Positions 28,663-48,082 of a DNA stretch of 64,000 nucleotides are shown piece by piece. Each line of letters opens with the position of its first letter. The stretch's first letter is position 1. Source of the stretch: Desulfobulbaceae bacterium (GTDB lineage: Bacteria; Desulfobacterota; Desulfobulbia; Desulfobulbales; SURF-16); the NCBI GenBank assembly GCA_024637145.1, contig JAGXFQ010000008.1, positions 1 to 64,000 of the forward strand, in the 5' to 3' direction. A model generated the notes under the pieces. The model saw only the letters and a list, made by a program, of their open reading frames with translations, had not been told where the DNA came from and searched no databases. A program made the translations under genes and the position numbers.

Positions 28663-29181
28663 TTAGACTTTGAACTCCGCCAAGCGGCGGCAAGCCTCTT
28701 GCTGAGACGGAGAGAGTTTGCTCTGATCCAGGTCCTGGAGACCAGACTGGATCAGAGCCACACGTCCCTGCAGCTCAACAATGCTCTCATTCACCACGGC
28801 AACAAAATCCTGAAGGGTATCATTCTGCCGCAAATTGACTTGAACGGTGAGATCGCCCCCACCCACCCGACGCAGGTCTTTCTCCACATGGTAGAGGGGG
28901 CCTGCTATCTTCTGGGGCAGAAACAGGGCAAGGGATATGCCGCTCAGCAGGCTCACCGCAGAGCCTGCCAAAATCACCGGCAACAGCAGGTCACTGACCC
29001 GGCGTACCGTAATGTGGGCCGTATAAAAAGAATCACCGATCTCTTGGCGCCCATAAAAATAGAGGATAAGGGCTGCCACGCCAGCACAGAGAAGCACTGT
29101 CCCAGCAATCCGCACCAGAAGCCAGCGCTGAAACTTATTTTTTACAGCCATATTCAACTTCTTTCTCTGATATTTTTCCAT
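28663..29181 (-). CDS. Two-TM membrane protein with HAMP-like segment
   Basis: TM WLLVRIAGTVLLCAGVAALILYFY and LLLPVILAGSAVSLLSGISLALFL followed by PQKIAGPLYHVEKDLRRVGGGDLTVQVNLRQNDTLQDF; AAGGAAGG SD. Confidence 0.75.
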   Translation of the reverse strand: MEKYQRKKLNMAVKNKFQRWLLVRIAGTVLLCAGVAALILYFYGRQEIGDSFYTAHITVRRVSDLLLPVILAGSAVSLLSGISLALFLPQKIAGPLYHVEKDLRRVGGGDLTVQVNLRQNDTLQDFVAVVNESIVELQGRVALIQSGLQDLDQSKLSPSQQEACRRLAEFKV

Positions 29182-29202
29182 AACGGCCTTCCTTGCTCCA
29201 TA

Positions 29203-30369
29203 TTAGCCAAAATTACGATGACAGCCCAGACAGAGTTCTTTGCGACTTGCCCGGGTCAAACGATACTCATGCTCTGAGGCATGGGCCTGATGACAGGACA
29301 TGCAGCTCAAACGACCATCAGCCAAGGTCTGATAATCAGGGGGGATAACCATACCGGCCTTGGGAGCGATATCCACCGGATGTGAACGTACTCCATGGGA
29401 CTGGGGGTGACAGCCGACACAGACGGTTATTGTCAAAGAGCGACTGTCCGTCAAGGCAAGATGATCCGCAGGGGTTTTGGCAGCCATGCCATCCCCCATT
29501 GTCCTTAAGGCCTGCTGAGCACTTTGGCCCAGCCGCATGGTGACCGGCTGATTGCCGGCAAAGTGGGCAAAAAAACGGCCCTCCTGTTGATAAAAGGCGG
29601 CCTGCAGCGCCACGTTGTCCGGGGCCGCAGCAGGTTGCCGGGCCGCCCTGGCAAAGAAATTCCTGGTGGAGAGAGTCATGGCCGGGGAACTCACCTCATT
29701 GCCGGCAATATCCCGGGAGACAGCGACAAATTTGTACTCCCGGTTAGCAGCCAGGCCGGCAAGGGTGATCTCATGGTCAGTGGCCCAGCAATGATCCACT
29801 GCGGTTGTCGAACTGAGCTCTTCTTTGCCAAAAAACAGCTGAGCATTGGCAAGGCGGTTCGTCTTCCAGGCAATACGGGCCGAAACAAAAACCCCTTTTT
29901 TTACCTCCACCAGGTGCAGGTCTGAAATTTTTCCCTCCCCAGGTGGCCCTGGAAGAGGTGGTAATTGGTCAAGGGCGGGCAGCGCCACCTCCTGCGCCAG
30001 GATCTTGCCGCTGCCCGCCGTGGCCAAAAGAGCAATGGTCGTGCCTGCCAAAGAGGAGGGTAACTCAAACCAATGCTCCTTATTTTCCTGACAGGCCCTG
30101 GCAAACCAGGAGACCTCATCTGGGAAATCTTCAGCAACCACAGCCGGCTCCGCAGAAGAGAGCCCACCCCTGACATGGCAGACAGCGCAATTATTTTCGA
30201 GAAAAGGGGCATGCACATAGAGTTTGGTATCACTCTGTTGACAGACATCCCCATGGCAGCGGCAACACTGGGCCGGCATGATGGTGTCGCCGGCCTCACT
30301 CTGCTCTGCAGAAAAAAAGAGCCCCAGTAAGGCAGCGATCACCAAGAGAGGTATCTGCAATCTATACAT
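29203..30369 (-). CDS. Exported pentaheme cytochrome with fibronectin-III-like domain
   Basis: CCRCH, CAVCH, CVGCH, CMSCH, CLGCH; central VSARIAWKTNRLANAQLFFG...HEITLAGLAANREYKFVAVSRDIAGNE FN3-like. Confidence 0.88.
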   Translation of the reverse strand: MYRLQIPLLVIAALLGLFFSAEQSEAGDTIMPAQCCRCHGDVCQQSDTKLYVHAPFLENNCAVCHVRGGLSSAEPAVVAEDFPDEVSWFARACQENKEHWFELPSSLAGTTIALLATAGSGKILAQEVALPALDQLPPLPGPPGEGKISDLHLVEVKKGVFVSARIAWKTNRLANAQLFFGKEELSSTTAVDHCWATDHEITLAGLAANREYKFVAVSRDIAGNEVSSPAMTLSTRNFFARAARQPAAAPDNVALQAAFYQQEGRFFAHFAGNQPVTMRLGQSAQQALRTMGDGMAAKTPADHLALTDSRSLTITVCVGCHPQSHGVRSHPVDIAPKAGMVIPPDYQTLADGRLSCMSCHQAHASEHEYRLTRASRKELCLGCHRNFG

Positions 30370-30407
30370 AACAATCCATCTTCCTATCAAAAATGCCTAT
30401 GGGCTCT

Positions 30408-46721: not shown

Positions 46722-46910
46722 ATTTCCCCCCATTTGTCAGGCAGCGAACCAACCGCGGCAATCAGCAAGGACCCCCCAGCGCTCTAGCGGTGGCCACCCT
46801 ACCCAAATTCAAAACAGCAAAAATCCGGCAACGATCACTCCTGCAGGTAGACAGCAGCCCTTTTTTGGGCGGGCAGGCGCGCTCCTTCCGGCACATAAAC
46901 AAGGAACATC

Positions 46911-46956
46911 AAAACACCGCAGCGGCCCATGCATCCGGAGCCGTTGCGGTGTTTTT
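46911..46956. terminator. GC-rich hairpin with T tract between two cytochrome genes
   Basis: ACACCGCAGCGGC...GCCGTTGCGGTGTTTTTT; 13-bp stem with one mismatch; longer T tract on + strand, TTTT on - strand. Confidence 0.65.
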
Positions 46957-46987
46957 TCAGCACAGGCGCTGTCAAACCATCGTGGGA

Positions 46988-48082
46988 TTACAGATCATCC
47001 TTGGTGGTATGGCAGGCAAAGCAACCCGTGCTGTTGTCTCCGGCATGCGCGACCATGCCGGTATAATCCCAGCGCAGCATGTCGGCATTGGGCGAGCCAT
47101 GGACCCGGTGGCAGGACACACAAGTGACAATGGCATCACCAGCGGCTTGTAAAACAATGGACCGCACAGAGGCCAGGTCATTACTGGCCACCGGCACACC
47201 CGGCAGGTAGTCATTATTAATACCGCCATAAGCACCATACTCCGTAGCGCTTACCTGATTCATATCAAAATCGGTAGGGTGGCGGATCCAGGGACTGCTC
47301 ATAGCATCCGCGAGAACCCCATCGGTCCCGGCCACATCAGCATGAAAGGTGCCATGGCAGGCGGCACAGAGGGCGCTGATGGTCACCGGGTTTCCACTTC
47401 CGTCAACAGTAGCGGTACTTTCCAAAGAACGGTCTATGCCATAATATTGATTATGGAGTAAGGCAGTGGGCGCCTTCTCCCAGGTGGAATCCTCAATACC
47501 CTTGACGCCAAGAAGCATGCGATAACTGTTGACCAGGTCGCCGCCATTCATGGTGCCGTCCGTGGTATCGGCCTTGCCGTGGTGGGCGCCGCTCACCGCC
47601 CCGAATTGGGTCGATGCGGCCCTGTCGCCGTGACAGCCATTAGTGCCGGCACAGGTGAGCTGGGCAGTCAAGGCAGAACCGCCAGGAGGCACATTAGCCA
47701 ACAACGAATCCGCGGTATTGATATCTAAAACATTGTGGCCAAAAGTTTGATCGTCATTAACCCAGGCAAAATTGCCGCCGGCCAGATCCATGGTTTTATT
47801 CGTATCAAAAACATAGGGCGTGCCGGAAGTGGAGCTGTTGTTCCCGGTATGACAGGCTACACAACCCGTCTTGATCAAAAGGGCCATATTGGGAGTCGTT
47901 GTTGCGACCCCATCCGCATCAACAGCCATGGAAACCCCACCCTGGCTATTATGCATGGTATGGCAATTACTACAGGGCTGGTTTTCACCCATCCTGGCCA
48001 GAGCCGGCGAAACCAGGAGGCCCACCAACACAGCACCTAACACCGGTGCCAACATCCTTTTTTGGTGAAAATATTTCTTCAT
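46988..48082 (-). CDS. Exported pentaheme cytochrome (5 CXXCH plus one CX5CH)
   Basis: CSNCH, CVACH, CAACH, CVSCH, CFACH and CAGTNGCH; signal peptide; closely similar to 33179-34255. Confidence 0.93.
   Translation of the reverse strand: MKKYFHQKRMLAPVLGAVLVGLLVSPALARMGENQPCSNCHTMHNSQGGVSMAVDADGVATTTPNMALLIKTGCVACHTGNNSSTSGTPYVFDTNKTMDLAGGNFAWVNDDQTFGHNVLDINTADSLLANVPPGGSALTAQLTCAGTNGCHGDRAASTQFGAVSGAHHGKADTTDGTMNGGDLVNSYRMLLGVKGIEDSTWEKAPTALLHNQYYGIDRSLESTATVDGSGNPVTISALCAACHGTFHADVAGTDGVLADAMSSPWIRHPTDFDMNQVSATEYGAYGGINNDYLPGVPVASNDLASVRSIVLQAAGDAIVTCVSCHRVHGSPNADMLRWDYTGMVAHAGDNSTGCFACHTTKDDL

What the first reader, a model, noticed from the sequence alone, without database searches (positions are those of the whole stretch)
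28663..48082. Putative outer-membrane extracellular-electron-transfer conduit with about 79 hemes in one co-directional locus
Seen: a continuous run of minus-strand genes encoding seven multiheme cytochromes (5, 14+2 atypical, 26, 16, 5+1, 8 and 5 CXXCH), a non-heme outer-membrane beta-barrel, a PpiC/SurA PPIase, an NHL propeller, a YVTN propeller lipoprotein, three CsgG-like proteins and a HAMP-like membrane protein. Several genes overlap by a few nt, which suggests translational coupling. Known: porin plus multiheme cytochromes is the logic of Mtr- and Pcc-type conduits, and conduits combining a barrel, PPIase, NHL protein and large cytochromes have been proposed in Desulfobacterota (e.g. 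Oet-type loci in ANME partner bacteria, from memory). Inference: this is such a conduit. The addition of three CsgG-like proteins and the 26/16-heme tandem may make it a distinct variant.
Basis: partly seen in the sequence, partly recalled or inferred. Interest (0 to 1): 0.92.

Follow-up and report, generated by a model that had tools for sequence, protein, structure and literature searches.

The report
Bacterial electric-wire assembly gene cluster
This run of genes most likely makes, exports and electrically feeds a heme-protein 'wire' (related to the OmcS nanowire of Geobacter) on the surface of a sulfur-cycling bacterium; the gene cluster is a divergent relative of one that is already described, so it is a good new member rather than a new kind of system.

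Summary
In detail: 79 CXXCH motifs in seven minus-strand multiheme cytochromes, with the non-heme genes as listed. The two '5-heme' proteins (46988-48082, 33179-34255) are OmcS-family hexahemes (five CXXCH plus one CX5CH); their family profile finds the OmcS nanowire at E=2.9e-22. Barrel, two PelC/CsgG-fold proteins, PPIase, 26-heme, 16-heme and NHL genes are homologous, in the same order, to the osc (omcS-companion) block of Geobacteraceae, reported to fold and secrete OmcS nanowires; the same core was described in 2017 and as the oet cassette in 2023. Best explanation: a nanowire assembly, export and electron-feeding machine of the osc/oet family. So 'conduit' is only partly supported, and the 26/16 tandem is the family core, not a novelty. 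The window belongs to a divergent branch ('type B') shared with Desulfurivibrio alkaliphilus, whose DA_402, induced >100-fold on ferrihydrite, sits in one such cluster. Type B differs from the Geobacter type by a lipidated 26-heme protein, a third PelC-like lipoprotein and the CX5CH heme site. The same genome also carries a Geobacter-type copy. No function was tested here; filament formation is inferred from homology.

The parts
46988..48082 (-). HexA: OmcS-family hexaheme cytochrome (5 CXXCH + 1 CX5CH), Sec signal; proposed filament subunit
   Evidence: profile vs OmcS 6ef8, E 2.9e-22; H44 of CHTMH invariant in 42 homologs
46905..46955 (-). Intrinsic-terminator-like hairpin just after HexA (before MHC14)
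   Evidence: MFE -28.8, z -3.7; similar hairpins after the upstream hexaheme in L141, L142, L116, L119, L126 and L111; none found in L140, L117, L118
48359..48373 (-). Sigma-54 (-24/-12) promoter-like site GGCATGTTTTTTGCT upstream of HexA
   Evidence: 2 sites in the window, 0.34 expected; 11/12 match; similar sites upstream of HexA in L139, L140, L141, L142, L118, L119
48722..50077 (-). NtrC-type response regulator (receiver + sigma-54 AAA + HTH_8), likely regulator
   Evidence: 59-82% identical orthologs beside HexA in L140, L141, L142
44964..46733 (-). MHC14: 14 CXXCH + 2 CX3CH cytochrome with N-terminal Ig-like domain
   Evidence: 78% and 65% identical syntenic orthologs (L141, L142); absent from most other type-B loci
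42824..44911 (-). Outer-membrane beta-barrel (OscE/OetI-like), about 28 strands with a beta-sandwich insert
   Evidence: searches (AF2; Foldseek: large OM barrels incl. MtrB, PapC; low TM), hhalign to Geobacter-type barrels E 1e-55
42004..42690 (-). PelC/GNA1162-fold lipoprotein (OscF-like, 'CsgGa'); likely start near 42591
   Evidence: (PDB PelC 9h80 8.7e-7; 5t10/5t11 5e-8)
40463..41986 (-). PelC/CsgG-like periplasmic protein with C-terminal FlgD-type Ig domain (OscG-like, 'CsgGb')
   Evidence: (hhalign E 1e-24)
39879..40481 (-). Third PelC/FlgT-like lipoprotein ('CsgGc'), found only in type-B clusters
   Evidence: (0 in type A, 10 in type B)
38257..39915 (-). PpiC/SurA-type prolyl isomerase (OscH-like)
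   Evidence: hhalign E 1e-53; tree
36339..38291 (-). 26-heme cytochrome (OscI; by anatomy OetB), lipoprotein (LASC lipobox); likely ATG at 38279
   Evidence: (37% over 652 aa to Geobacteraceae 26-heme, E 7e-128)
35176..36372 (-). 16-heme periplasmic cytochrome (OscJ; by anatomy OetA); likely ATG at 36342
   Evidence: (35%, E 1e-63 to the own-genome copy)
34265..35203 (-). NHL six-bladed propeller (OscK-like)
   Evidence: hhalign E 3e-32
33179..34255 (-). HexB: second OmcS-family hexaheme (5 CXXCH + CX5CH), 58-60% identical to HexA
31899..33209 (-). 8-heme cytochrome, conserved in type-B loci
30408..31865 (-). YVTN propeller lipoprotein (OscD-like, placed downstream)
   Evidence: hhalign E 1e-55
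29203..30390 (-). 5-heme cytochrome
28663..29181 (-). Small membrane protein (two hydrophobic segments; HAMP-like by eye, no Pfam match), conserved at the end of several type-B loci
   Evidence: L114, L115, L116, L126
50683..51726 (+). Redoxin/AhpC-TSA + TPR protein, divergent conserved neighbour
51810..52994 (+). 10-heme cytochrome, divergent conserved neighbour
   Evidence: 75%, 56% and 43% in L141, L142, L140
53214..54512 (+). NHL propeller, divergent conserved neighbour

Best explanation
The locus is a divergent ('type B') member of the osc/oet family: a machine that folds, exports and anchors an OmcS-type cytochrome filament and connects it electrically to the cell. Proposed working: HexA (and its paralog HexB) are secreted hexaheme subunits that polymerise head to tail. 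The PpiC-type isomerase (OscH) chaperones them in the periplasm. The large outer-membrane barrel (OscE/OetI), with PelC-fold lipoproteins and the Ig-bearing PelC-like protein beneath it (OscF, OscG and a third one), forms the export gate. The 16-heme periplasmic protein and the lipid-anchored 26-heme protein carry electrons to the filament base. The NHL and YVTN propellers help assembly or shape. MHC14, MHC8 and MHC5 are accessory electron carriers. A sigma-54 promoter and the adjacent NtrC-type regulator probably drive HexA, and a partial terminator after HexA would make subunit in excess over machinery. Shown here: gene content, homology, order, fold class and signal types. Inferred: polymerisation, export, electron feeding, direction of electron flow and regulation.
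For: (1) The HexA-family profile matches OmcS (6ef8/6nef) at E 2.9e-22, the only significant PDB hit; heme motifs and CHTMHNS align, and the second His of CHTMH (OmcS residue 16) is invariant in 42 homologs. In OmcS and OmcE one heme is ligated by a His of the adjacent subunit (PMC9473688); that it is this His is from memory. (2) Loci from named Geobacteraceae (L056, L064, L072, L073, and L088/L092 for the 3' part) carry OmcS - YVTN - barrel - PelC-like x2 - PPIase - 26h - 16h - NHL; the window has seven of these eight in the same order, with hhalign E 1e-24 to 1e-56 for the non-heme genes and hexaheme, 37% over 652 aa for the 26-heme protein and 35% for the 16-heme protein. (3) The eight-gene block GSU2500-2493 is reported linked to OmcS maturation and secretion (PMC12977616; PMC13194489: OscH folding, OscEFG secretion, OscD morphology, GSU2495 = oscI, GSU2494 = oscJ). 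(4) G196 is D. alkaliphilus AHT2 (3,097,763 bp, PMC5016858; exact DA_402 qPCR primer at 468,689). DA_402, induced >100-fold with ferrihydrite and modelled as an OmcS-like filament (PMC12545173), lies directly upstream of the barrel of a type-B cluster and has the same CX5CH. (5) Conserved sigma-54 site and regulator; hairpin after the subunit gene in several relatives.
Against: No experiment on this organism. HexA is only about 22-28% identical to type-A OmcS relatives, and OmcS paralogs such as OmcT are not known to form wires (PMC12977616). The AF2 model of HexA was too poor to use (pLDDT 56; no Foldseek hit). The original osc paper (Shen 2025) could not be read; its claims are taken from two citing papers. 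The osc-type large cytochromes were not seen expressed during metal respiration in several older studies cited by PMC5539420. The physiological role of OmcS filaments is itself disputed (abstract of PMC11077965).
Confidence: 0.7

Rival explanations
1. A static trans-outer-membrane conduit (the Oet reading): the barrel sheaths a cytochrome (16-heme inside, lipidated 26-heme outside), and the hexahemes are surface electron exchangers or filaments assembled independently. The PPIase and PelC-like proteins only help barrel or cytochrome biogenesis.
For: Barrel size is in the MtrB class (about 28 predicted strands; MtrB 6r2q_B among top Foldseek hits). In type B the 26-heme protein is a lipoprotein (window + 10 of 11 loci), whereas in type A only 2 of 26 are, matching OetB as an extracellular-facing lipoprotein (PMC10553843).
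Against: MtrB_PioB Pfam score is below cut-off (20.7 vs 23 bits). TM-scores are about 0.3 and not specific. The conserved co-occurrence with a prolyl isomerase, PelC-fold lipoproteins and OmcS-type subunits is not seen in Mtr/Pcc loci (from knowledge). Work reported in PMC13194489 assigns secretion to OscEFG.
Confidence: 0.22
2. The same machine used for electron uptake (from a syntrophic partner, Fe(0) or minerals) rather than for Fe(III) or electrode respiration. This is about direction and is compatible with either mechanism above.
For: Oet cassettes are conserved in ANME-partner sulfate reducers, which take up electrons (PMC10553843); dsrB is present in this genome.
Against: The only expression data for a type-B subunit found here (DA_402) are for electron export to ferrihydrite (PMC12545173). 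Sequence cannot give direction.
Confidence: 0.3
3. Unrelated multiheme genes gathered by chance, or a decayed cluster.
For: The genome is a fragmented, 86% complete assembly.
Against: All frames are open; order is conserved across families and in D. alkaliphilus; motif density is far above shuffles.
Confidence: 0.01

Closest known systems
osc (omcS-companion) cluster of Geobacter sulfurreducens, GSU2493-GSU2501 with omcS/omcT (Shen et al. 2025, as described in PMC13194489 and PMC12977616)
   Same: OmcS-family hexaheme upstream; barrel, PelC/CsgG-fold proteins, PPIase, 26-heme, 16-heme and NHL in the same order; YVTN propeller present.
   Different: YVTN lies downstream; third PelC-like lipoprotein; 26-heme protein lipidated; third heme bound by CX5CH; extra 14-, 8- and 5-heme cytochromes; PPIase falls in a separate clade.
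oet cassette (OetABI + OmcS/OmcX) of ANME-partner sulfate reducers (PMC10553843) and the four-gene NHL/16-heme/26-heme/PPIase operon (PMC5539420)
   Same: Same core, same neighbours (OmcS-like), lipoprotein cytochrome.
D. alkaliphilus AHT2 clusters around DA_402 and (by gene spacing) DA_756-DA_765 (PMC12545173)
   Same: Same order; hexahemes 33-37% identical to HexA; CX5CH shared; DA_402 induced >100-fold on ferrihydrite.
   Different: No MHC14 between hexaheme and barrel; DA_402 has a seventh heme motif.
MtrCAB / Pcc (OmbB-OmaB-OmcB) conduits
   Same: Large OM barrel with multiheme cytochromes.
   Different: Barrel below the MtrB_PioB cut-off; different accessory genes.
PelB/PelC and CsgG export systems
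   Same: PelC-fold lipoproteins next to a large barrel (works-like only).
   Different: No CsgG hit; no polysaccharide or curli genes in the locus.

Membership tests
osc / OmcS-companion cluster | Adjacent OmcS-family hexaheme cytochrome | tested here: met
   profile vs OmcS E 2.9e-22; six motifs
osc / OmcS-companion cluster | Barrel - OscF - OscG - OscH - 26h - 16h - NHL in this order | tested here: met
   (one extra lipoprotein inserted before OscH)
osc / OmcS-companion cluster | OscD-like YVTN propeller present | tested here: met
   hhalign E 1e-55; but downstream of the core, not upstream of the barrel
osc / OmcS-companion cluster | Needed for folding, secretion and morphology of a cytochrome nanowire | not testable with these tools
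   needs genetics and microscopy
Skennerton four-gene core | NHL + 16-heme + 26-heme + PPIase adjacent | tested here: met
oet cassette | Periplasmic MHC, porin, and extracellular-facing lipoprotein MHC | tested here: met
   16h with signal peptide and no lipobox, barrel, 26h with lipobox; orientation of the lipoprotein not testable
oet cassette | Sequence homology to OetI reference OEU57520.1 | not tested
   sequence not available in the tools
OmcS-type nanowire subunit | Polymerises into a filament | not testable with these tools
   CHTMH histidine invariant; AF2 too poor
MtrCAB / PioAB | MtrB_PioB porin (PF11854 over cut-off) | tested here: not met
   20.7 vs 23 bits
CsgG curli exporter | CsgG domain (PF03783 over cut-off) / CsgG in PDB profile search | tested here: not met
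   14.7 vs 20.8 bits; PelC, GNA1162 and FlgT found, CsgG not
PelC-like superfamily | PelC-fold lipoprotein | tested here: met
   invariant Cys after signal; E 5e-8 to 9e-7; E 2e-4; sequence profile only, no structure

The most novel reading that the evidence does not exclude
Type-B clusters merge export and wiring in one complex: a PelC-ring-gated barrel extrudes the hexaheme filament, and the outer-membrane-anchored 26-heme lipoprotein (soluble in the Geobacter type) stays as the fixed electrical socket at its base, so the secretion channel is also the conduit. A genome that holds both types (this one) would run two different wires.
Probability: 0.3. Interest if true: 0.75.

Novelty: new member of a known kind. 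Interest (0 to 1): 0.45.

Why it matters
It ties together two literatures that name what is probably one machine: a 'conduit' (oet, methane-oxidising partners) and a 'nanowire assembly cluster' (osc, Geobacter). It links them to the cytochrome induced most strongly when D. alkaliphilus respires iron oxide with sulfide. The lipidated 26-heme protein and the third PelC-like lipoprotein give clean, testable differences that bear on the open question of how cytochrome wires leave the cell and plug into it.

Tried and rejected
AF2 of HexA: pLDDT 56, no Foldseek hit, unusable. Shen 2025 is not held. Sequence-only PDB searches with single hexahemes found nothing; the profile did. MtrB membership, CsgG membership, the 26/16 tandem as a novelty, and a chance origin were considered and rejected. 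A second sigma-54-like site at 30031-30045 lies inside a gene and is probably chance. Promoter/terminator consensus scans alone were only modestly above shuffles. His16 as the OmcS inter-subunit ligand could not be confirmed in held papers. One profile search, the search of protein representatives, was left unused because it gives neither names nor context.
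Full report
Observation. All 15 minus-strand genes are present where stated and together hold 79 CXXCH; the shuffled region gives a mean of 1.2 and at most 4 in six frames. Two CX5CH (HexA, HexB) and two CX3CH (MHC14) make 83 candidate hemes; a conserved divergent 10-heme neighbour (51810-52994) brings the extended locus to 89 CXXCH plus these four.

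Identity of the two small cytochromes. The proteins at 46988-48082 and 33179-34255 are 58-60% identical paralogs with motifs CXXCH, CXXCH, CX5CH, CXXCH, CXXCH, CXXCH. A profile of 42 relatives finds OmcS (6ef8/6nef) at E 2.9e-22 as the only significant solved structure. OmcS residue 16, the second His of CHTMH, aligns with H44 of HexA, invariant in all 42. In OmcS and OmcE a heme is ligated by a histidine of the neighbouring subunit (PMC9473688); that this is His16 is from memory and was not found in held papers. CX5CH is a type-B mark: present in 18 of 24 type-B hexahemes, the other six having seven CXXCH, and in none of 97 type-A ones.

Identity of the machinery. A scan with OmcS residues brought loci from named Geobacteraceae and others. 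Their order is OmcS - (OmcT) - YVTN (about 470 aa) - barrel (about 740) - two PelC/CsgG-fold proteins (about 200 and 380) - PPIase - 26-heme - 16-heme - NHL (16h/NHL seen where the locus reaches far enough, e.g. L092, L088, L111). This matches the eight-gene block GSU2500-2493 reported as linked to OmcS maturation and secretion (PMC12977616), with GSU2495 = oscI and GSU2494 = oscJ and OscH folding, OscEFG secretion, OscD morphology (PMC13194489). Assigning OscD to the YVTN gene, OscE to the barrel and so on is inferred from order and length. Window genes are homologous throughout: hhalign E from 1e-24 to 1e-56 for the non-heme genes and hexahemes; 26-heme 37% over 652 aa; 16-heme 35%. The NHL/16-heme/26-heme/PPIase core was described in 2017, with two copies noted in D. 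alkaliphilus (PMC5539420), and the oet cassette, of which it appears to be a part, was named in 2023 (PMC10553843).

Type A and type B. PPIase sequences split into a Geobacter-type clade and a clade with the window, D. alkaliphilus and others (midpoint-rooted FastTree, no support values examined; L124 and L125 fall near the base). Type B differs by: a third PelC-like lipoprotein (10 in type-B loci, none in type A); a lipobox on the 26-heme protein (window and 10 of 11 type-B loci; 2 of 26 type A); CX5CH; and a downstream module HexB - MHC8 - YVTN - MHC5 - small membrane protein, in variable order (L114, L115, L116, L126). The type-B barrel profile found matches in 70 of 265 genomes of the order (a few of these are weak type-A matches). 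The window's own genome also holds a canonical type-A cluster on contig C32 (L111) and another hexaheme on C5.

Link to physiology. G196 is D. alkaliphilus AHT2: single contig of 3,097,763 bp (PMC5016858) with an exact match to the published DA_402 qPCR primer. DA_402 lies directly upstream of the barrel of one type-B cluster. It was induced more than 100-fold on ferrihydrite and modelled as an OmcS-like filament (PMC12545173). DA_756 and DA_765, also reported induced, are nine genes apart, which fits the two hexahemes flanking the second cluster (L115); this last match is by gene counting only.

Structure. The barrel model is usable (pLDDT 78, pTM 0.61; 28 strands counted from the DSSP string, with a beta-sandwich insert at about 290-380). 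Foldseek finds large outer-membrane barrels, including MtrB and the PapC usher, at TM about 0.3: a large pore, not a specific family. The small lipoproteins match PelC (known, from memory, to form a ring under an export barrel), GNA1162 and FlgT, not CsgG. That, with the reported secretion role of OscEFG, is why an export gate is favoured.

Regulation. A -24/-12 site (48359-48373) lies upstream of HexA, with counterparts in six relatives, and an NtrC-type regulator gene adjoins it in three. A strong hairpin follows HexA (z -3.7) and also follows the hexaheme in several but not all relatives. This suggests more subunit than machinery (inference).

Verdict. The finding is real and interesting, but the locus belongs to an already named family. 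The most likely function is cytochrome-nanowire assembly plus electron feeding (0.70), with a static conduit as the main rival (0.22). Electron direction is open.

Noticed in passing
G000 contig C32, about 48000-61700 (L111): Second, canonical Geobacter-type osc cluster in the same genome: NHL, OmcS-like (6 CXXCH), YVTN, barrel, two PelC-like, PPIase, 26-heme, 16-heme, NHL.
   Followed up: partly
window 50683-56686, + strand: Divergent conserved module beside the regulator: redoxin-TPR protein, 10-heme cytochrome, NHL propeller, PAS-GGDEF diguanylate cyclase; syntenic in L141 and L142, partly in L140.
   Followed up: partly
window 24766-25629, + strand: A 12-CXXCH cytochrome outside the reported locus, not linked to it by the synteny tests done here.
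   Followed up: no
G000 contig C5:58091-59050: Orphan hexaheme cytochrome, 43% identical to HexA, away from any osc cluster.
   Followed up: no
26-heme proteins of L044-L126: Lipobox present in type-B and absent in most type-A 26-heme cytochromes; exceptions L080, L099 (type A with lipobox) and L123 (type B without).
   Followed up: yes
L114, L119, L121, L122, L124, L126 hexahemes: Six of the 24 type-B hexahemes replace CX5CH by two CXXCH 10-14 residues apart, a possible seventh heme.
   Followed up: partly
window 22012-23850 (-) and 26650-28562 (-): Ser/Thr kinase with TPR repeats; GGGtGRT protein next to a NifU-like protein; ordinary neighbours.
   Followed up: no
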